Positions 209 through 13,430 of a stretch of DNA of 13,430 nucleotides are shown one piece after another; within the stretch, counting starts at the first letter, position 1, and each line of letters begins with the position of its first letter. A program made the translations under genes and the position numbers. The DNA is from Ruminococcus callidus (GTDB taxonomy: Bacteria > Bacillota > Clostridia > Oscillospirales > Ruminococcaceae). The notes under the pieces are model-generated. The model ran no database searches and was not told the origin of the DNA. It saw only the letters and a program-made list of their open reading frames with translations. The DNA is taken from positions 1 through 13,430 of the forward strand of contig NZ_JAJFCK010000052.1 of the NCBI RefSeq assembly GCF_020709055.1. Direction: 5' to 3'.

Positions 209-519
209 TTATTTGGTTTTTGCAGAATCACTGCGAGCCTGCTTCTCTTCTTTCAGCTTCTTCATGGTGGGACGCATCACCAGAAAGACCGTACCGCCGC
301 AGGCAACTGTAAAGATTGCCAGAAAGCTGAGAATCTTTCCGGTTTTTCCGGAGGATTCCTCCTCCGTGTCCTCTGCGGGATCCGCCGCAGAAGTCGTGGT
401 CTGTGCCGCAGGTTCTGCTGCACAGGTCAGTGCATTTCCCGAAACTGCCAGAATCCAAAGACTCAAAAAGCTGCAAAGCAGGAGCCTCCAGCGAATGCGT
501 CTACGCTTCCCCATGGCCA

Positions 520-520
<1 letters not shown>
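209..520 (-). CDS. Small single-pass membrane protein of unknown function, coupled to rpoC
   Basis: This 103-aa protein is not recognised as any family. It has a basic N-terminus (KRRRIRWR, residues 5-12), a hydrophobic signal segment (about 13-33) with a plausible cleavage site near residues 33-36, an acidic Ser/Thr/Ala-rich linker (about 36-58), a second hydrophobic helix (about 63-82) and a basic tail (about 83-103). If the first segment is cleaved, the mature protein would be a very short type I membrane protein with a small acidic outside part. Its ATG overlaps the rpoC stop codon by one base (TAATG). No Shine-Dalgarno site is visible, so translational coupling to rpoC is likely. An in-frame ATG two codons later is an alternative start. 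The terminator follows closely, so it is the last gene of the operon. Organisation and signals support a real gene; function is unknown. Confidence 0.65.
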
Positions 521-4116
<3,596 letters not shown>

Positions 4117-4146
4117 ACCGTTACCTCCCACTACAATCTATGAGGA

Positions 4147-4209: not shown

Positions 4210-7200
4210 TTACAGCAGGTCGCTGTCTCCGTCGCCCATGTCATCCGAACCAAGATAGTCGTCGCCAAACAGATCGTCTGCATCATCGTCGCTGCTGCCA
4301 TAACCGTCGGTGTCATCATAGTCATCGTCGTCATAGCCGCCCTCCCGGAACGACATACCGGCATTCTTCATATCGTCGTCCACGGTATCGTAACTCATGG
4401 TCTCGTCTGCATCTTCGGATGCGGAAACCGGCTGCGGAATGATGCTGTCATCCTCGTCGAAGTTTGCCTTGAGGTCGATCTCATTCTGCTGGCCGTCCAG
4501 AACCTTGACATCCAGACCCAGCGACTGCAGCTCCTTGATGAGCACCTTGAAAGATTCCGGAATGCCCGGCTTCGGAACATTCTGACCCTTGACGATTGCC
4601 TCGTAGGTGCTGACACGGCCGATGGTGTCGTCCGACTTCACGGTCAGGATCTCCTGCAGCGTGTATGCTGCGCCGTATGCTTCCAGCGCCCATACTTCCA
4701 TCTCACCGAAACGCTGTCCGCCGAACTGTGCCTTACCGCCCAGCGGCTGCTGGGTAACCAGGGAGTACGGGCCAACGGAACGTGCGTGGATCTTATCGTC
4801 AACCAGATGGTGGAGTTTCAGGTAATACATATAGCCGACAGTAACACGGTTGTCGAACTTTTCACCGGTACGGCCGTCATACAGCGTGAACTTGCCGTCC
4901 TCGCTCATTTCCAGTGCCTTGGGGTTGATGACCTTATCCATGGGCTTCAGTTCAAACGGATCGTTGCGGTGCGCCGCATTTCTTTCGTTTGCCTCACGGA
5001 AGCAGTCACGGATGTCTTCTTCGTGCGCGCCGTCGAATACCGGTGTCATGACGTGCCAGCCCAGTGCCTTGGCAGCCATACCCAGATGCACTTCCAGAAC
5101 CTGTCCGATGTTCATACGGGAAGGTACGCCCAGCGGGTTCAGAACGATATCCAGCGGTGTGCCATCCGGCAGGAACGGCATATCCTCTTCCGGCAGAATG
5201 CGGGAAACGACACCCTTGTTGCCGTGACGGCCTGCCATCTTATCGCCCACAGAGATCTTCCGCTTCTGTGCGATGTAGCAGCGAACCAGCTTATTGACAC
5301 CCGGCGACAGCTCCTCGCAGTTCTCACGGGTGAAGATCTTGACATCTACAATAATACCAGCTTCGCCGTGAGGCACCTTCAGGGAGTTATCCCGCACTTC
5401 CCGTGCCTTTTCCCCGAAGATGGCACGCAGCAGACGCTCTTCCGCGGTCAGCTCTGTCTCGCCCTTCGGGGTGACCTTACCAACCAGAATATCGCCGGCG
5501 TGAACCTCGGCACCAATGCGGATGATACCGTTTTCGTCCAGATCCTTCAGCGCATCATCGCCCACGTTGGGGATATCTCTGGTGATCTCCTCCGGTCCCA
5601 GCTTGGTTTCACGGCACTCGATCTCCAGTTCCTCGATGTGCACCGAAGTGAAGACATCTTCTCTTACCAGACGCTCGTTCAGCAGAACGGCATCCTCGTA
5701 GTTATAGCCCTCCCAGGTCATGAAGCCGATGAGGGCGTTCTTGCCCAGAGAGATCTCGCCGTCTGCGGTTGCCGGACCGTCCGCCAGCACCTGACGCTTC
5801 TTGACCCGCTCGCCAACGCTGACGATGGGGCGCTGATTGATGCAGGTAGACTGGTTGGAACGCTTATACTTCTGGAGCTCGTACTTATGGGTCTTGTGGT
5901 CGTCGTCCACCAGAACGATCTCATCTGCGGAAACAGAATCGATCACGCCGTCATAATCCGATACCACGCAGACGCCGGAGTCAACAGCTGCCTTATATTC
6001 CATACCGGTGCCGACAAACGGGCGCTCGGTCTTCAGCAGCGGCACTGCCTGACGCTGCATGTTGGAACCCATGAGGGCACGGTTTGCGTCGTCGTTTTCC
6101 AGGAACGGGATCATAGAGGTTGCCACGGAAACTACCATCTTCGGCGATACATCCATGAAGTCGATCTTATCGGCATCGATTTCCAGAATCTGATCACGGT
6201 AACGTGCTGCAACCTTGGAATGAGCAAAACGTCCCTCTTCTGTCAGCGGTTCGTTCGCCTGCGCTACAATATAATTATCTTCCATGTCGGCAGTCATGTA
6301 GACTACCTCGTCTGTGACAATACCGGTCTTCTTGTCCACTCTCCGGTACGGCGCTTCGATGAAGCCGTACTGGTTGATGCGGGCGAACGTTGCCAGATAG
6401 GAGATCAGACCGATGTTCGGACCTTCCGGCGTCTCGATCGGGCACATTCTGCCGTAGTGGCTGTAGTGTACGTCACGAACTTCGAATCCGGCACGGTCAC
6501 GGGACAGACCGCCGGGGCCCAGTGCGGACAGACGGCGCTTGTGCGTCAGCTCTGCCAGCGGATTGTTCTGATCCATGAACTGGGACAGCGGCGAAGAGCC
6601 GAAGAATTCCTTGATCGCGGAAGTCACCGGACGGATGTTGACCAGTGCTGCCGGTGTGATGTTCTCTGCATCCTGCGCCTGAATGGACATGCGCTCACGG
6701 ATGACACGCTCCATACGGGTGAAACCGATGCGGAACTGGTTCTGGAGCAGCTCGCCCACAGAACGGATACGGCGGTTGCCCAGATGGTCGATGTCGTCCA
6801 CGTTGCCCACGCCGTCGCACAGGTTCAGGAAGTAGCTGATGGTGGCGAAGATATCATCCAGAATGATGTGCTTTGGCACCAGCTCGTCTGCCTTTCTGCG
6901 GATGGCTGCCTTCAGGTCGTCCTCTCCGGTGCAGCTCTCCAGAATCTCGTTCAGGACGCTGAACCGCACCTTTTCGCTGATGCCCAGCGGTGCGCAGTCG
7001 AAGGAAACGTAGCCGGAAATATCCACCATGCCGTTACCGATGACCTTGGCTTCCTTCTTGACAAAGCGAATGGCGCTCTCGCCGGTCTCTGTCTCGTAGT
7101 ATTCCTTGGTTTCTACGGTGATGTAGGCTTCCGTTACGCCGGCCTCCTGCACCTGCAGCGCCTGATCGTAGGTGAGCACGGTTCCGGTCTCGAAGAGCAC

Positions 7201-8109
7201 CTCGCCGGTATAGGCGCTGACAACCGGACGGGACAGCTCGTGTCCTGCCAGACGGCTGGCAATGCCCAGCTTCTTGTTGTATTTATAACGGCCAAACCGG
7301 CTCAGGTCGTACCGCTTGGCATCGAAAAACAGATTGTTCAGGTGGTTCAGGGCACTCTCCACCGTAGGCGGTTCGCCCGGACGCAGCTTCTTGTAAACTT
7401 CCTTCAGCGCATCATCGGTGTTCTTGGTGCCGTCCTTTTCCATGATGGTCTGTGCCAGACGCTCGTCGTTGTCGAACATCTCCTGGATCTCCTCGTCGCT
7501 TCCCACACCCAGCGAACGGATGAAGGTCGTGATCGGGATCTTGCGGTTCTTATCAATGCGGACATAGACCACGTCGTTGGAATCCATCTCGTATTCCAGC
7601 CATGCGCCGCGGTTCGGAATGACAGTTGCCTTGAACAGATCCTTACCGGTGCGGTCCTTTTCGGAGGCGTAGTAAACGCCCGGCGAACGAACCAGCTGGG
7701 AGACGATAACACGCTCTGCGCCGTTGATGACAAAGGTGCCGCTGTCGGTCATCAGAGGAAAGTCGCCCATGTAGATTTCGGATTCCTTGATCTCGCCGGT
7801 TGCATTATTTCTCAGACGAGTGGTCACACGGAGCGGTGCTGCGTAGGTGACATCTCGTTCTTTGCACTCTGCGATGGTGTACTTCGGGGTAGCGTCGATC
7901 CGATAGTCAACAAAATCCAGAACCCAGTTGCCGTTATAGTCCGTAATGGACGAAACGTCACGAAAGACCTCTTTCAGTCCCTTTTCCCGGAACCAGTTGT
8001 AAGAGTTCTTCTGTACCTCAATCAGGTTCGGCATTTCGAGAACCTCGTTGATCGTCCCGAAATTCATGCGAACGTTTTTCCCGCACTGTTTTGGCGTAAC
8101 ATGCACCAT
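4210..8109 (-). CDS. rpoB: DNA-directed RNA polymerase subunit beta
   Basis: RpoB is the second large subunit of core RNA polymerase, and this 1299-aa protein matches the family along its whole length. The rifampicin pocket is intact: QFMDQNN (510-516) and [13 protein letters not shown] (522-534), with Q510, D513, H523, R526 and S528 matching the drug-sensitive residues of E. coli (Q513, D516, H526, R529, S531). No classical resistance substitution is present. Also visible are [14 protein letters not shown] and [12 protein letters not shown]. The start ATG follows AAGGAGG at good spacing. The protein is about 100 residues longer than Bacillus subtilis RpoB, partly because of an acidic tail: residues 1256-1299 contain 19 Asp, one Glu and no Lys or Arg. 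No ribosomal protein genes lie immediately upstream. Transcription starts at the consensus promoter at 8273-8301. Confidence 0.98.
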
Positions 8110-8466: not shown

Positions 8467-8504
8467 CGGAGGATATTGACAGTCTATCCTCCGGGTGTTA
8501 TAAT
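8467..8504 (+). promoter_or_regulatory. Promoter of the three-gene secreted-protein operon, with inverted repeat around the -35 box
   Basis: TTGACA (8476-8481), a 17-nt spacer and TATAAT (8499-8504), with TG one base before the -10 box: a perfect extended -10 promoter. A 9-bp perfect inverted repeat, CGGAGGATA (8467-8475) and TATCCTCCG (8485-8493), brackets the -35 box and is a candidate operator. The predicted start is near 8511, about 52 nt before the ATG at 8564. Confidence 0.85.
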
Positions 8505-8563: not shown

Positions 8564-9184
8564 ATGAAAAAAATACTCGCATACTTCACTGCCTCGGTGC
8601 TGGCGCTGGCTTCTCTGCCGTATTCTGCCGGCGCAGCGGAGTTTGACCCGTTTCCGCCGGGGGATGTGGATCGGGACACCGTCATCACAGGACATGACGC
8701 TGCCATGGTCTCCCGCTATATCCTGCGGGGCGACAACCGCCTGACGGACAAGCAGCTGAAGCAGGCGGACATCAACCGGGACGGCGTAGTTGACCAGACA
8801 GACGCCGACCTCATTCACCAGCAGGCACTGGAAAACGGCTACCGGCTGGGAGATGCCAATCTAGACGGTAATATTTGGATAGAAGACGCATTTCAGATTA
8901 CACAGGCGAACGCCCAAAACGCTGCATTCCTCCGGGGGGATATCACTGCGCCATGGATGCCCTTCTTTTCCAAGCTGCAAATTAATCTCGCCGACATGAC
9001 CGGCTTTCCGTATCTGGAGGTCAGCCTTGACGATGCTATGACCGTATTGCAGTACTACAGTTATCTTGCAGCCGGCTATGACTTCGGCATCTCGCCCTAT
9101 GAACGTGACGTTTTCCGCAATGCCGACGGGCAGCGGTGCTATTACTTTGATCCGCACGATTCGATATACCACGAAAATTCATAA
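8564..9184 (+). CDS. Secreted tandem dockerin-like protein, first gene of a three-gene operon
   Basis: This 206-aa protein has a signal peptide (1-24, ending SAGA-A) and two dockerin-like modules. The first has two canonical 12-residue calcium loops: D34-x-D36-x-D38 to D45 (DVDRDTVITGHD) and D69-x-N71-x-D73 to D80 (DINRDGVVDQTD). The second has one good loop, D97-x-N99-x-D101 to D108, and a degenerate half (NLADMTGF... then SLDDAMTVLQYY, 154-165). The C-terminus carries DGQRCYYFDP with Cys192. No enzyme or sugar-binding domain fits in the remaining length. Dockerins normally plug a carrier protein into a cohesin; here the dockerins are nearly the whole protein. AGAAAGGA lies upstream of the ATG. 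It is an operon with the next two paralogs, with 14-bp gaps. Calcium binding is likely from the motifs; cohesin binding is inference. Confidence 0.85.
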   Translation: MKKILAYFTASVLALASLPYSAGAAEFDPFPPGDVDRDTVITGHDAAMVSRYILRGDNRLTDKQLKQADINRDGVVDQTDADLIHQQALENGYRLGDANLDGNIWIEDAFQITQANAQNAAFLRGDITAPWMPFFSKLQINLADMTGFPYLEVSLDDAMTVLQYYSYLAAGYDFGISPYERDVFRNADGQRCYYFDPHDSIYHENS

Positions 9185-9198
9185 TTGGAGGGATTGCT

Positions 9199-9816
9199 AT
9201 GAAAAAATCACTTGCATGCCTGACTGCCTCTATTTTAGCTATCGCCTCCCTGCCCGTTTCTGCCGGCGCAGCGGAGTTTGACCCGTTCCCGCCGGGGGAC
9301 GTAGATCGGGACACCGTCATCACAGGACATGACGCTGCGCTGGTCTCCCGCTATGTGCTGTTGGGCGACAACCGCCTGACGGACAAGCAGCTGAAACTGG
9401 CGGACATCAACCGGGACGGCGTAGTTGACCAGACAGACGCCGACCTCATTCACCAGCAGGCAGTGGAAAATGGCTACTGGCTTGGAGATGCCGATCTGGA
9501 CGGTAAACTTTCGATAGATGACGCATTTCAGATTGCACAGGAGTACTCCAAAAACGCCGCAATCCTCCGAGGGGATCTGAATGTGCCGTGGATGCATTTT
9601 TCCGGTCTGCAAGCCAACCTTGCCAACACGACTGGCTTTCCGTATCCGGATGTCAGCCTTGACAATGCTATGAATGTATTGCGGTACTACAGTCACTGTG
9701 CAGCCGGCCATGACTTCGGCATCTCGCCCTATGAACGTGATGTTTTCCGCAATGCCGACGGGCAGCGGTGCTATTACTTTGATCCGCACGATTCGATATA
9801 CCACAAAAATTCATAA
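9199..9816 (+). CDS. Secreted tandem dockerin-like protein, second gene of the operon
   Basis: A 205-aa paralog of the gene before it, nearly identical in residues 25-90 and in the last 35 or so residues. It has a signal peptide (1-24) and calcium loops at D34-D45, D69-D80 and D97-D108 (DADLDGKLSIDD). The degenerate fourth loop is NTTGFPYPDVSLDN, and the C-terminal motif DGQRCYYFDP contains Cys191. An extra Cys167 sits in the last helix. GGAGGG precedes the ATG, which is 14 bp after the previous stop, so the genes are co-transcribed. Most differences from the first paralog fall in the middle (about 91-170), which points to diversification of the second module while the first is held constant. 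Function unknown beyond probable calcium-dependent protein binding outside the cell. Confidence 0.85.
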   Translation: MKKSLACLTASILAIASLPVSAGAAEFDPFPPGDVDRDTVITGHDAALVSRYVLLGDNRLTDKQLKLADINRDGVVDQTDADLIHQQAVENGYWLGDADLDGKLSIDDAFQIAQEYSKNAAILRGDLNVPWMHFSGLQANLANTTGFPYPDVSLDNAMNVLRYYSHCAAGHDFGISPYERDVFRNADGQRCYYFDPHDSIYHKNS

Positions 9817-9830
9817 TTGGAGGGATTGCG

Positions 9831-10451
9831 ATGAAAAAATCACTTGCATGCCTAATTGCCTCTATTTTAGCTATCGCCTCCCTGCCCGTTTCTGCCGGCA
9901 CAGCGGAGTTTGACCCGTTTCCGCCGGGGGACGTAGATCGGGACACCGTCATCACCGGACATGACGCTGCGCTGGTCTCCCGCTATGTGCTGTTGGGCGA
10001 CAACCGCCTGACGGACAAGCAGCTGAAACTGGCAGACATCAACCAGGACGGCGTAGTTGACCAGACAGACGCCGACCTCATTCATCAGAAGGCGGTGTAT
10101 CTGCTGGGAGATGTGCAGCTGAACGGCAACATAAATGACGACGACGCTTTCGACACCTTACAGGAAGTCTCCTATGCTGCTACGTTCCTGTATCATGACG
10201 GCAGCACAACCCCGAAGTTTTCCAAATTGCAGAAAAACCTCGCCGATATCACCGGCTTGCAGGACGGCGCACCAGACATGGATGACGCCATGACCATTCT
10301 GCAATACTACTGTATCTATGCTGCCGGCTGTTTGAGCAACACTCAAGCAGCCTATGGCTCAGGCGTGTTCTATATTACAAAAAATGGTGCGCCGTGCTAT
10401 TTCTTTGATCCGGCGGATTATATTCAAAATGGTCCCGGAAAAGGATTTTAA
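9831..10451 (+). CDS. Secreted tandem dockerin-like protein, third gene of the operon, divergent C-terminus
   Basis: A 206-aa paralog. Residues 1-85 almost copy the second gene, but the rest differs strongly. The first module keeps loops D34-D45 and D69-D80. The third loop is weak (D94-x-Q96-x-N98 to D105), a five-residue segment before it is missing, and the fourth half is DITGLQDGAPDMDDAMTILQYY in outline (139-160). The C-terminus is NGAPCYFFDP with Cys189, plus Cys160 and Cys166. It has the same GGAGGG ribosome site and 14-bp gap as the gene before. A terminator follows 42 bp after the stop. The sharp switch from near identity to divergence suggests recombination joined a conserved 5' half to a different 3' half. 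Confidence 0.85.
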   Translation: MKKSLACLIASILAIASLPVSAGTAEFDPFPPGDVDRDTVITGHDAALVSRYVLLGDNRLTDKQLKLADINQDGVVDQTDADLIHQKAVYLLGDVQLNGNINDDDAFDTLQEVSYAATFLYHDGSTTPKFSKLQKNLADITGLQDGAPDMDDAMTILQYYCIYAAGCLSNTQAAYGSGVFYITKNGAPCYFFDPADYIQNGPGKGF

Positions 10452-10493
10452 GTTCATCAACAGTATTGTAAAAATTGTACAGTGCCCATTTTG

Positions 10494-10531
10494 CCAAGGC
10501 TGCGGTTTTCGTCGCAGTCTTGGTATTTTTT
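10494..10531 (+). terminator. Terminator of the three-gene operon
   Basis: An 11-bp stem with one G-T wobble pairs CCAAGGCTGCG (10494-10504) with CGCAGTCTTGG (10513-10523), with an 8-nt loop, then TATTTTTT. It lies 42 bp after the third operon gene. Confidence 0.85.
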
Positions 10532-10607
10532 CGCCAATTTTGTCGAATCCTGTCTGATTCCGTCGAATTATGTTAAAATATTTTCTTTATATTTTATCAA
10601 AAAGTGG

Positions 10608-10636
10608 TTGACATTGAATTTAAAATGTGCTATGAT
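10608..10636 (+). promoter_or_regulatory. Promoter of the 296-aa dockerin protein gene
   Basis: TTGACA (10608-10613), a 17-nt spacer and TATGAT (10631-10636), with TGC before the -10 box. The predicted start is near 10643, giving a leader of about 90 nt. Just after it, TGAGATAT (10644-10651) can pair imperfectly with ATATTCTCA (10670-10678). Confidence 0.8.
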
Positions 10637-10732
10637 AGAAGCATGAGATATCCAAAGTTCGAACGCAGAATATTCTCAGTACCGTCATTTTGATATGGTA
10701 TAAATTGTAAAATACGTATGGAGGTAGAAAAA

Positions 10733-11623
10733 ATGAATCTGTTGAAAAAAGTAACCGCAGCGCTCTCTGCTGTGGTAATGGCAGCCGGTGCTGTCAGCGC
10801 TATCCCGACTTGTGCGATTGGGATAAGTCCAGATAAAAACGGCAAACAGTCCGCATTTGAGTACGAGCTGGAAACCTATCGCCTGTCTGATACCAGAATT
10901 GGTGTGCGAATTGCAACCATAAATAATCCTGGAGTATTGAAATTTGGACTCGTTCTTAAGTATGATGCAGACTGTACTTTAATGGATTTAGAGCAGAATC
11001 TTCCGGACTTCTTGGTTTCTATTCAGAATGACACTAATAAGCACCAGATTATTGTGCCTATGCTAAGCGTAAACTCTGATCGTGACGGCACCTGCATAGA
11101 TAATCTTAACGACTTTTCGTGCTATTTCGAATTCAGCGTTCCCAGTTCTTCTGCATATCCTCTGCAATTTTCGTCTTGCGTTTACAAATACGATTCTTTG
11201 AACGAGGGTATCAGCTTTGACTTCGATAGCACCAAGGACTCTCGTCCGAGAGATACTTCTGTAGGTGTAAAGTTAAAGGATGTTCCTTATCGAATCGGCG
11301 ATGTAGACGAAGATAACAAGATCACCATGGATGATGGATTTAGCATTCTGCAAATGGCTAAGTATGGTAACAATCTTCTCACCGTGGATGACCTGAATGA
11401 GTATCTTTTTAAGCACTCTATTTACAAAGGCACCCGCACATGGAATGACATGTTCCCCAAACTGACCTATGCAGAGTGCGCTGATGCCAATCAGGATGGT
11501 TATATCAAGGAAGAGGATTCCGATGAGGTTATGGAATACTATTCTCAGGCAGCCGCTTCGAATATCACCATGTCTACGCTGGTAAATACTATTGGATATA
11601 AGACGGTAACTTACGAATATTAA
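10733..11623 (+). CDS. Secreted protein with possible cohesin-like domain and C-terminal dockerin
   Basis: This 296-aa protein has a signal peptide (about 1-23 or 1-28), a beta-rich region (about 41-168) and a dockerin (about 188-275). The dockerin loops are canonical: D190-x-D192-x-D194 to D201 and D251-x-N253-x-D255 to D262, each followed by a helix (DGFSILQMAKY, DSDEVMEYYSQAA). The beta-rich region has the size and some patterns of a cohesin (VLKFGLVLKYDADC, then a later SCYFEFSVP strand), but this match is by eye and weak. If correct, the protein would resemble single-cohesin adaptor scaffoldins such as ScaC of Ruminococcus flavefaciens. The start is ATG 10733, after GGAGG; an earlier in-frame ATG at 10718 overlaps that site. 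Codon use is more AT-rich than the neighbours, with TTA and CTA leucines. It lacks the CY[FY]F tail of the flanking paralogs. Confidence 0.8.
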   Translation: MNLLKKVTAALSAVVMAAGAVSAIPTCAIGISPDKNGKQSAFEYELETYRLSDTRIGVRIATINNPGVLKFGLVLKYDADCTLMDLEQNLPDFLVSIQNDTNKHQIIVPMLSVNSDRDGTCIDNLNDFSCYFEFSVPSSSAYPLQFSSCVYKYDSLNEGISFDFDSTKDSRPRDTSVGVKLKDVPYRIGDVDEDNKITMDDGFSILQMAKYGNNLLTVDDLNEYLFKHSIYKGTRTWNDMFPKLTYAECADANQDGYIKEEDSDEVMEYYSQAAASNITMSTLVNTIGYKTVTYEY

Positions 11624-11640
11624 TTTTTCCAAAAAATCGC

Positions 11641-11669
11641 TTGACAAATTCTGCATCTCATGCTATAAT
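11641..11669 (+). promoter_or_regulatory. Promoter of the 193-aa secreted protein gene
   Basis: TTGACA (11641-11646), a 17-nt spacer and TATAAT (11664-11669), with TGC before the -10 box: perfect consensus. It begins only 18 bp after the previous stop codon, and no hairpin terminator is visible between them, so read-through from the 10733 gene is possible. Confidence 0.85.
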
Positions 11670-11745
11670 GAAAACGAAGAAAAAAGAAAGTTTTCTTGAT
11701 CTTCAGAAAAAGAAAGAATGACTTTTTTGAGAAAGGATGATTTTT

Positions 11746-12327
11746 ATGAAAAAGACACTCGCATTTTTGACGGCATCTATCATGGCGCTGGGCTCGCTGC
11801 CGTTCCTCTCCGTTGGTGCGGAAAGTTTTGCACCGGGCGATGTGGATATGGACGGCGTAATCACCGGGCATGATACCGCCTTGGTTTCCCGCCATCTGGC
11901 ACGTGGCGATAACAGTCTTTCCAGAAAGCAGCTGGAACTGGCTGACTACAATGGGGATGGCGTAGTCGATCAGGCAGATGTAGAAGCAATCCACGAGAAC
12001 GAGGTTTGGGAACTCGGCGATGTGGATATGAGCGGCGAACTTCGGATGGATGATGCACAGGCAATCTTTCAGGAGTTTTCCTATGCTTCTGCCGGAAGAA
12101 ACCCCATTCCTGATGCACTCACCGATGTACAGAAGAATCTCGCCGACATGTCTGGAAAATACACCGTTGCTACAGAAGCAACTCTGGACGAATCTTTTGA
12201 TTGTCTTGTCGTTTATTCGTTGCGGGCAGCTAGTCGTTTCGATGAGGTATTTCCTGTTGTTGACGGACAGAAGTGCTATTTCTTCGACAATCCCTACGAA
12301 AACGATCTCGAAATAATCGTCAAGTAA
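11746..12327 (+). CDS. Secreted tandem dockerin-like protein, single-gene unit
   Basis: This 193-aa protein belongs to the same family as the 8564-9831 genes but to a second subgroup. It has a signal peptide (1-25, ending VGA-E), loops D32-D43 (DVDMDGVITGHD), D67-D78 (DYNGDGVVDQAD) and D92-x-D94 to D103 (Ser in position five), the conserved VQKNLADMSG segment (128-137), and an eroded fourth loop. The C-terminal motif is DGQKCYFFDNPYE with Cys177, followed by a short hydrophobic end not seen in its neighbour. Ribosome site GAAAGGA and ATG at 11746; an in-frame ATG at 11737 overlaps that site and is rejected. It has its own promoter and terminator, unlike the first three paralogs. Confidence 0.85.
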   Translation: MKKTLAFLTASIMALGSLPFLSVGAESFAPGDVDMDGVITGHDTALVSRHLARGDNSLSRKQLELADYNGDGVVDQADVEAIHENEVWELGDVDMSGELRMDDAQAIFQEFSYASAGRNPIPDALTDVQKNLADMSGKYTVATEATLDESFDCLVVYSLRAASRFDEVFPVVDGQKCYFFDNPYENDLEIIVK

Positions 12328-12364
12328 CTTCTCTTCGATTCCTTTTAAAACACAACATAACCAG

Positions 12365-12400
12365 CGTGCGTCTTGTCTTCGGATGGGGCGCACGTTTTTT
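12365..12400 (+). terminator. Terminator after the 193-aa gene
   Basis: CGTGCG (12365-12370) pairs with CGCACG (12389-12394), extended by two more pairs, and a small inner TC-TTCG-GA hairpin may form in the loop. TTTTTT follows (12395-12400). Confidence 0.85.
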
Positions 12401-12456
12401 GTGAAGTTCCACAAAAAATTTTTCCGAAATTTTCTCCCATTTTTTTGCAATCCCTA

Positions 12457-12515
12457 TTGACAGCGGATTTTCCATGTGCTATAATGAACATAGGATATGA
12501 GATTCTTGTATCCTA
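12457..12515 (+). promoter_or_regulatory. Promoter of the 191-aa gene, with inverted repeat at the start site
   Basis: TTGACA (12457-12462), a 17-nt spacer and TATAAT (12480-12485), with TGC before the -10 box. A perfect 7-bp inverted repeat, TAGGATA (12491-12497) and TATCCTA (12509-12515), begins at the expected start site. It could be an operator or a 5' mRNA hairpin. Its AGGATA/TATCCT core also occurs around the -35 box at 8470-8490. Confidence 0.85.
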
Positions 12516-12560
12516 CGTAGCCTTTTTAAGAAAGAACTAAAACAAGAAAGGATGATTTTT

Positions 12561-13136
12561 ATGAAAAAGGCACTTGCATTTTTGACGGCATCTATCATGG
12601 CGCTGGGCTCGCTGCCGTTCCTCTCCGCTGGTGCGGAAGACGCTTTTGCACCGGGCGATGTGGACATGGACGGCGTGCTCACCGGACATGATGCTGCACT
12701 GGTTTCCCGCCACCTGGCATATGGTGACAACAATCTCTCGGAAGAACAGCTGAAGCTGGCAGACTACAATGGGGATGGCGTAGTCGATCAGACAGACGTA
12801 GAAGCAATCCACGAGAACGAGGTTTGGAAGCTCAGCGATGTCGATATGGATAACGATATTGATCTGGATGATGCAATGGCAATTCTGCAGGAGTATTCCT
12901 ATGCCGTAGTAGGAAGAATAGCAGGAAACCTCCCTCCTGAGAATGCGTTCACTGATGTGCAGAAAAACCTCGCCGATGTCGGAGGAATTCATGCAACTCC
13001 TACAGAACCGACCATGGATCAGGCGATCGTTTGCCAGAGAGTTTTCACGATGGAGTCAGCCGGGTACTGTTATGCAGAAATATATCCTGTTGTTGACGGG
13101 CAGCCGTGCTATTTCTTCTATAACCCTTACGAATAA
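12561..13136 (+). CDS. Secreted tandem dockerin-like protein, duplicated unit
   Basis: A 191-aa close paralog of the 11746 gene. It has a signal peptide (1-25), loops D33-D44, D68-D79 and D93-x-D95-x-D97 to D104 (DVDMDNDIDLDD), the conserved VQKNLADVGG (133-142), an eroded fourth loop and the C-terminal motif DGQPCYFFYNPYE, ending the protein, with Cys183. Cys158 and Cys170 are extra. ATG at 12561 follows GAAAGGA; the in-frame ATG at 12552 overlaps that site. Its promoter, leader and first 50 bases are repeated 820 bp downstream, so this gene or its neighbour arose by very recent tandem duplication. Confidence 0.85.
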   Translation: MKKALAFLTASIMALGSLPFLSAGAEDAFAPGDVDMDGVLTGHDAALVSRHLAYGDNNLSEEQLKLADYNGDGVVDQTDVEAIHENEVWKLSDVDMDNDIDLDDAMAILQEYSYAVVGRIAGNLPPENAFTDVQKNLADVGGIHATPTEPTMDQAIVCQRVFTMESAGYCYAEIYPVVDGQPCYFFYNPYE

Positions 13137-13184
13137 ATCATTCCGTCACGCCATCTGATTCCTTTCAAAACACAACATAACCAG

Positions 13185-13220
13185 CGTGCGTCTTGTCTTC
13201 GGATGGGGCGCACGTTTTTT
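13185..13220 (+). terminator. Terminator after the 191-aa gene
   Basis: Identical to the hairpin and T-tract at 12365-12400, 820 bp downstream. It lies about 48 bp after the stop codon. Confidence 0.85.
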
Positions 13221-13276
13221 GTGAAGTTCCACAAAAAAATTTTCCGAAATTTTCTCCCATTTTTTTGCAATCCCTA

Positions 13277-13335
13277 TTGACAGCGGATTTTCCATGTGCT
13301 ATAATGAACATAGGATATGAGATTCTTGTATCCTA
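13277..13335 (+). promoter_or_regulatory. Promoter of the truncated last gene, with start-site inverted repeat
   Basis: Exact copy of the promoter at 12457-12515: TTGACA (13277-13282), a 17-nt spacer, TATAAT (13300-13305), and TAGGATA (13311-13317) with TATCCTA (13329-13335). Confidence 0.85.
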
Positions 13336-13380
13336 CGTAGCCTTTTTAAGAAAGAACTAAAACAAGAAAGGATGATTTTT

Positions 13381-13430
13381 ATGAAAAAGGCACTTGCATT
13401 TTTGACGGCATCTATCATGGCGCTGGGCTC
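13381..13430 (+). CDS. Start of another secreted dockerin-family gene (truncated by window edge)
   Basis: Only 16 codons are visible, MKKALAFLTASIMALG, identical to the start of the 12561 gene, after the same GAAAGGA ribosome site. This is a signal peptide N-terminus. By position in the tandem repeat it should encode a further paralog, so the array continues to the right. Confidence 0.75.
   Translation, partial: MKKALAFLTASIMALG

What the first reader, a model, noticed from the sequence alone, without database searches (positions are those of the whole stretch)
8564..13430. Expanding array of secreted proteins made almost only of dockerin-like modules
Five complete paralogs and one partial gene encode signal peptide plus two dockerin-like modules and nothing else recognisable. 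Dockerins normally act as plugs fused to enzymes or scaffolds, so dockerin-only proteins raise the question of what they do: cap or compete for cohesins, bridge two cohesins, buffer calcium, or bind something else. The first module, including ITGHD and DAALVSR-type recognition positions, is nearly constant, while the second varies, as if one end has a fixed partner and the other a changing one.
Basis: partly seen in the sequence, partly recalled or inferred. Interest (0 to 1): 0.8.

Follow-up and report, generated by a model that had tools for sequence, protein, structure and literature searches.

The report
Double-dockerin gene array beside cohesin-like gene
Next to its RNA polymerase genes, an uncultured Ruminococcus-type gut bacterium carries a row of genes for small, apparently secreted proteins that are almost nothing but two molecular plugs, and in the middle sits a gene whose product looks like a socket fused to another plug, a pairing that recurs in related bacteria.

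Summary
Five complete paralogues (D1-D5) and one truncated start encode a signal-peptide-like start and two dockerin-like modules. Module 1 passes Pfam Dockerin_1 in all five. Module 2 is missed by Pfam but scores on a dockerin profile built here from related genomes (D5 marginally), and its model fits Ruminococcus flavefaciens dockerins. X-like genes lie directly upstream of double-dockerin genes at seven loci of five related genomes. The 'TGHD' module 1 is strong in 8 of 16 genomes of the related genus, always just after the signal peptide, only in ORFs below 500 aa. All 16 encode cohesins.

Best explanation: D proteins are two-ended adaptors; module 1 is held by X's cohesin-like domain, module 2 plugs into another cohesin. 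Folds (by model) and neighbourhood are shown here; binding is inferred, and 4 of the 8 TGHD genomes show no X.

'Constant module 1, changing module 2' is real, but partly recombination: D2 and D3 are nearly identical in the 5' half even at silent sites. Double- and multi-dockerin proteins are in print; the cohesin-like/double-dockerin gene pair was not found in seven paper searches.

The parts
8564..9184 (+). D1: signal-peptide-like start + TGHD-type dockerin (aa 33-88) + dockerin-like module 2 (about aa 96-177) + tail
9199..9816 (+). D2: same architecture; the modelled member
9831..10451 (+). D3: same architecture; 5' half nearly identical to D2 even at silent sites
10718..11623 (+). X: signal-peptide-like start + cohesin-fold-like domain (about aa 45-189) + dockerin-like module (about aa 190-287)
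11746..12327 (+). D4: second subfamily (ORF open from ATG 11737; start at 11746 chosen by eye from the spacing to AGAAAGG)
12561..13136 (+). D5: second subfamily (ORF open from ATG 12552; start at 12561 chosen likewise)
13381..13430 (+). D6: truncated start of a further D4/D5-type gene, cut by the contig end inside a repeat
8476..8504 (+). Consensus promoter-like site (12/12, TG before second hexamer) before D1-D2-D3
   Evidence: consensus match only
10608..10636 (+). Promoter-like site (11/12) before X
   Evidence: consensus match only
11641..11669 (+). Consensus promoter-like site (12/12) before D4
   Evidence: consensus match only
12457..12485 (+). Consensus promoter-like site (12/12) before D5
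   Evidence: consensus match only
13277..13305 (+). Consensus promoter-like site (12/12) before D6
   Evidence: consensus match only
10492..10525 (+). Terminator-like hairpin after D3
   Evidence: consensus match only
12363..12396 (+). Terminator-like hairpin after D4 (copy at 13183-13216 after D5)
   Evidence: consensus match only
12337..12610 (+). 274-nt unit, 99% identical to 13157-13430: intergenic promoter region plus gene start

Best explanation
The array makes secreted two-ended adaptors of a cellulosome-like system. Each D protein has, right after its signal peptide, a class of dockerin (TGHD type) that in the related genus was found only on small multi-dockerin proteins, followed by a dockerin-like module of the class that ends several other secreted proteins of the genus. 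Gene X makes a cohesin-like domain fused to a dockerin-like module that scores, weakly, on the same second class. I propose that X's cohesin-like domain holds module 1 of the D proteins, so that X and D form a pair whose two remaining dockerin-like modules plug into further cohesins on the cell surface or on scaffoldins; the variable module 2 changes where or how tightly each paralogue sits. Shown: architecture, folds by model, two module classes, neighbourhood, cohesins in relatives. Inferred: secretion, calcium dependence, who binds whom, purpose.
Confidence: 0.38

Rival explanations
1. Two-ended adaptors that do not need X: module 1 docks on a conventional cohesin of the genus (cell-wall-anchored single cohesin, lipoprotein cohesin or cohesin-dockerin adaptor) and module 2 on another; X is a separate adaptor that merely shares the locus.
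For: Four of 8 genomes with TGHD dockerins show no X. All 16 genomes of the related genus have Pfam cohesins, and 14 of 16 have a relative of an anchored-type single cohesin matching over its cohesin part (in G001 and G009 only the tail matches). In the C. thermocellum double dockerin Clo1313_0689 the first module prefers the cohesin of a cell-bound scaffoldin (review PMC12484212, section read), and its structure is the best solved match of the module-1 profile.
Against: Does not explain the repeated X-D neighbourhood in diverged genomes. Cohesins are equally present in genomes without TGHD dockerins.
Confidence: 0.33
2. Caps or competitors: D proteins occupy cohesins without bringing any enzyme and so tune how full scaffoldins are.
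For: No catalytic or carbohydrate-binding domain matched above a curated cut-off in any D protein; consensus promoter-like sites would fit strong expression.
Against: Does not explain two distinct dockerin classes in fixed order; a cap needs only one. Module 1 is not the class seen at the C termini of other secreted proteins, so it would not compete with them.
Confidence: 0.13
3. Dockerin-derived calcium-binding surface proteins that no longer bind cohesins, diversifying under phage, host or competitor pressure; variability reflects recombination and relaxed constraint.
For: The second calcium loop of module 2 is degenerate in all five window paralogues (by eye); module 2 shows dN/dS 0.65-0.88 for D1/D2 and X's cohesin-like domain is variable; dockerins of leucine-rich-repeat proteins mostly bound no tested cohesin (PMC5301203 passages).
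Against: Module 1 is conserved (dN/dS 0.15 between subfamilies) with both calcium loops readable; D genes recur beside a cohesin-like gene.
Confidence: 0.13

Closest known systems
Double-dockerin proteins of Clostridium thermocellum (Clo1313_0689 double-dockerin module, PDB 8x39/8x3a; also double dockerins 'with no partner')
   Same: Two dockerins in one polypeptide, some with nothing else; best solved match to module 1 by profile (44.6 bits) and top Foldseek row for D2 (E 0.028). Known to me through the review PMC12484212 section 3.2 and the PDB titles; the original paper is not held.
   Different: The solved one is attached to a protease. The review section says nothing of paralogue arrays or a neighbouring cohesin-like gene; I did not test its modules on the two class profiles made here beyond.
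Multi-dockerin proteins of Ruminococcus flavefaciens 007c and 17 (seven tandem dockerins; two non-tandem dockerins)
   Same: Dockerin repeats in one protein in a related ruminococcus (PMC4081043, passages).
   Different: No fixed N-terminal TGHD class or gene array is described in the passages seen; sequences not compared here.
ScaC-type adaptor scaffoldins of Ruminococcus (single cohesin + dockerin)
   Same: X has the same order, cohesin-like then dockerin-like, and a similar size (one search shows such proteins in the related genus; the name ScaC comes from PMC11557425, passages).
   Different: X's domain is not recognised by the Pfam cohesin model. Its dockerin-like module cannot be told from the adaptors' by the class profile (X 22.3 bits; three adaptors 20.0-29.5).
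Group-4 dockerins of R. flavefaciens that bind the cell-surface cohesin ScaE (Gly-Arg dyad at positions 10-11)
   Same: Module 1 has Gly-His in the window, and Gly-Arg in some relatives (G007, G012), at the matching place in its first repeat.
   Different: The dyad is in one repeat only (second repeat reads DQTD or DQAD) and is Ser-His or Ala-His in other relatives; the module-1 profile scores type I dockerins (4fl4_A 33.5 bits) above the ScaH dockerin (24.9 bits).

Membership tests
Dockerin type I (module 1 of D1-D5) | Significant match to PF00404 above the curated cut-off | tested here: met
   5 of 5, 41.4-54.9 bits against 22.9
Dockerin type I (module 1 of D1-D5) | Two 12-residue calcium loops, each followed by a helix | tested here: met
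   Both loops readable in all five; helices 43-55 and 78-90 in the D2 model. Calcium binding itself not tested.
Dockerin type I (module 1 of D1-D5) | Binds a cohesin | not testable with these tools
   Needs recombinant proteins
Dockerin (module 2 of D1-D5) | Match to PF00404 | tested here: not met
   No match outside module 1 in 5 of 5
Dockerin (module 2 of D1-D5) | Match to a dockerin profile of related genomes, and dockerin fold | tested here: met
Dockerin (module 2 of D1-D5) | Two intact calcium loops | tested here: not met
   First loop largely intact, second degenerate in all five by eye; intact in several relatives. Ruminococcus type III dockerins also lack a canonical second loop (PMC12484212, passage)
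Cohesin (N-domain of X) | Match to PF00963 | tested here: not met
   No match for X or for the X-like relatives scanned; cohesins of Ruminococcus reported earlier can also be missed by domain models (PMC11557425, passages)
Cohesin (N-domain of X) | Cohesin beta-sandwich fold | tested here: inconclusive
Cohesin (N-domain of X) | Binds a dockerin | not testable with these tools
   Needs recombinant proteins or complex modelling
Double-dockerin protein | Two dockerins in one secreted polypeptide | tested here: met
   with the limits on module 2 given above; secretion judged from the signal-peptide-like start only

The most novel reading that the evidence does not exclude
A self-contained matched set: X is a dedicated socket for the TGHD plug, so each X-D pair becomes a double plug that can link two scaffoldins or tie a scaffoldin to the cell surface, and arrays of D genes with changing second modules diversify the linkage.
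Probability: 0.27. Interest if true: 0.75.

Novelty: new variant of a known kind. Interest (0 to 1): 0.55.

Why it matters
The function of multi-dockerin proteins is described as unknown in a 2025 review (PMC12484212, section 3.2). Here a family strong in 8 of 16 genomes of one related genus comes, at several loci, with a small, testable candidate partner encoded next door, so the question of what dockerin-only proteins do could be answered by a handful of binding assays. If the partner is right, it would also give a new cohesin-dockerin specificity.

Tried and rejected
Whole-genome search of the window's own genome: none held. Close-relative scan of genome contigs with D2: no confirmed locus; repeated with alignment A2: 12 loci, of which L009, L010 and L012 (other lineages) and the fragment L011 were not pursued.

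'Module 2 is an enzyme dockerin': I first thought so. Of 7 carriers of this class scanned, 5 are leucine-rich-repeat proteins, one a GDSL hydrolase and one unassigned; two enzymes with internal dockerins (L128 with GH11, L124 with GDSL) do not reach 20 bits on the class profile. I call it only the C-terminal class.

'X is required for D': rejected, because 4 of 8 TGHD genomes show no X.

'Constancy of module 1 proves a fixed partner': rejected, because silent sites are homogenised between D2 and D3.

'Partial gene is a pure assembly duplicate': disfavoured, since the end repeat is 99%, not 100%, identical, but not excluded.

X's cohesin relation by sequence: hhalign scores 24.7-37.4 against maxima of 12.3-13.9 in two sets of 40 column-shuffled controls and 8.7-12.4 for reversed sequences, but probabilities of only 11-78%; one search included one wrongly framed sequence (L191) among its cohesins and is given little weight.

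Pfam E-values up to 10 for non-dockerin families (EF-hands, others) stay below their cut-offs, except that EF-hand_1 passes in one relative (26.2 against 25.4), and were not followed.

Novelty searches cover open-licence PubMed Central only.

Full report
What is there. The window holds rpoC (520-4131, minus; named by reading) and rpoB (4210-8109, minus; Pfam), then on the plus strand D1, D2, D3, X, D4, D5 and a truncated D6. D1-D3 are 14 nt apart. Promoter-like sites lie before D1, D4, D5 and D6 (12 of 12 consensus positions) and X (11 of 12); terminator-like hairpins follow D3, D4 and D5. The scan found 14 promoter-like sites against 7.9 (sd 3.3) in shuffles and 8 terminator-like against 5.4 (sd 2.6). 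This reads as five transcription units, by pattern only.

Constant and variable. Identities among the five: module 1 62-96%, module 2 26-65%. Among 13 close homologues from other assemblies and the window: module 1 94%, module 2 68%, tail 88% on average. Silent sites: D2/D3 dS is 0.08-0.10 in signal peptide and module 1 but saturated in module 2; D1/D2 tail dS 0.05; D4/D5 signal-peptide dS 0.04, module 1 0.55, module 2 0.71 to saturated. So parts of the genes have been exchanged or copied among paralogues. Across subfamilies (D2/D4) module 1 shows dN/dS 0.15 at dS 1.77. The paralogues are mosaics with a protected module 1.

Gene X. X (301 aa) has 10 matches at E <= 1e-3 in the protein collection, one of them identical. 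Some share longest-contig lengths with D homologues (86933: P0007, P0013, P0101 and X-type P0064; 22059: P0012 and P0063), which suggests but does not prove shared contigs. Its N-domain has no Pfam match. The model is weak (47; N-domain about 60-80), yet Foldseek and VIA-align put cohesins first, mixed with same-fold adhesin domains and others. The profile's best PDB sequence hit is a cohesin at E 0.013, the next a phage cement protein at 0.016. In 10 aligned X sequences the signal peptide (96%) and dockerin-like part (84%) are conserved while the cohesin-like part is not (49%, middle third 28%).

Relatives. The 16 genomes held for the genus of G002 (a genome found through A2) have rpoB matches 78-88% identical to the window's in 18 of 19 rows, partial and second copies included; one row of 63% was set aside. 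That the window belongs to this genus is inferred from this. Module-1 (TGHD) dockerins of at least 60 bits occur in 8 of 16; G016 has only a weak match of 37 bits. In a family-wide draw, with at most 22 candidates scored per genome, 5 of 297 genomes matched at E <= 1e-10, two of them weakly (45.5 and 47.4 bits). Among 778 distinct ORFs of all loci fetched by then, 32 have module 1 at 60 bits or more, the five of the window included; they are 182-484 aa, module 1 begins at residue 29-55 in 32 of 32, and 29 of 32 have a C-terminal-class match above 10 bits after it. Some carry two or three pairs or a further C-terminal dockerin.

Neighbourhood. Reading TGHD loci showed an X-like gene directly upstream on the same strand at G001:C80, G003:C27, G003:C71, G007:C37 and G007:C72 (identified). 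To limit circularity I searched the 16 genomes with the N-domain of X and these five alone: nine hits, these five plus G012:C10 (1-nt overlap with a TGHD gene), G006:C88 (39 bits; 35 nt from a double dockerin with TEHD instead of TGHD), G015:C23 (47 bits; followed by a module-2-like remnant) and G003:C6 (20 bits). The last is a single-cohesin protein with a sortase-type tail (by eye), not an X; PDB cohesins match it at E 1e-10, and relatives matching over the cohesin part occur in 14 of 16 genomes, in G001 and G009 only the tail matches. A further pair with a more diverged cohesin-like partner lies at G006:C57, though its N-domain is not clearly related to X (hhalign 0.5%). Against the pairing, G002, G004, G005 and G008 have TGHD genes without a detectable X.

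Mechanism. Pfam cohesins are present in 16 of 16 genomes, so relatives have sockets. X's dockerin-like module scores 22.3 bits on the module-2 class, no better than three ordinary adaptors (20.0-29.5). The distance test over 8 loci links X's cohesin-like domain to module 1 (r 0.48, p 0.013; 0.50, p about 0.007 given rpoB) but not to module 2, and is fragile (one of six tests; 0.24 without G012). I therefore prefer an X-module 1 pairing giving a bridged double plug, at 0.38, only just ahead of the rival in which module 1 uses a conventional cohesin. Binding, calcium need and secretion are inferred.

Known or new. Double dockerins, including ones with nothing else, and multi-dockerin proteins are in print, with function unknown for the latter (PMC12484212 section 3.2 read in full; PMC4081043 passages). 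I found no description of a cohesin-like gene paired with double-dockerin genes in the searches listed, of which I saw listings, starts of abstracts and the passages cited. Hence a new variant of a known kind.

Noticed in passing
G007: This genome bin holds two full-length rpoB genes (83% and 80% to the window's), so it is probably a mixture of two species; its X-D loci may come from different organisms.
   Followed up: partly
L123 (G007:C72) 1437-15920 and beyond: As in the window, an X-D pair lies on the same contig as rpoBC, about 12 kb from a gene that reads like rpoC, with other genes between.
   Followed up: no
L113, L117, L125; L120, L123, L129: In three genomes TGHD genes lie near genes that read like the glycogen branching enzyme and a class II aldolase (named by reading); in three loci they lie near a gene that reads like ssb.
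   Followed up: no
window 8564-13136, C-terminal tails: All five D proteins end in a tail with CY[YF]F, a conserved cysteine in a predicted secreted protein; the more distant relatives shown lack it.
   Followed up: no
L160 7017-8816: Two tandem cohesin-like/dockerin proteins with near-identical starts but different dockerin halves, upstream of a TEHD double dockerin.
   Followed up: partly
G002:C114, G003:C10, G005:C10, G014:C151, G016:C7: ORFs of 792-910 aa, all but the one of G002:C114 with two or more spaced matches to a ruminococcal cohesin, at places not listed by the Pfam cohesin search: possible multi-cohesin scaffoldins.
   Followed up: no
window 209-520, minus: Small ORF (103 aa) beside rpoC with a signal-peptide-like start and a membrane segment by eye; no family match above a cut-off.
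   Followed up: no
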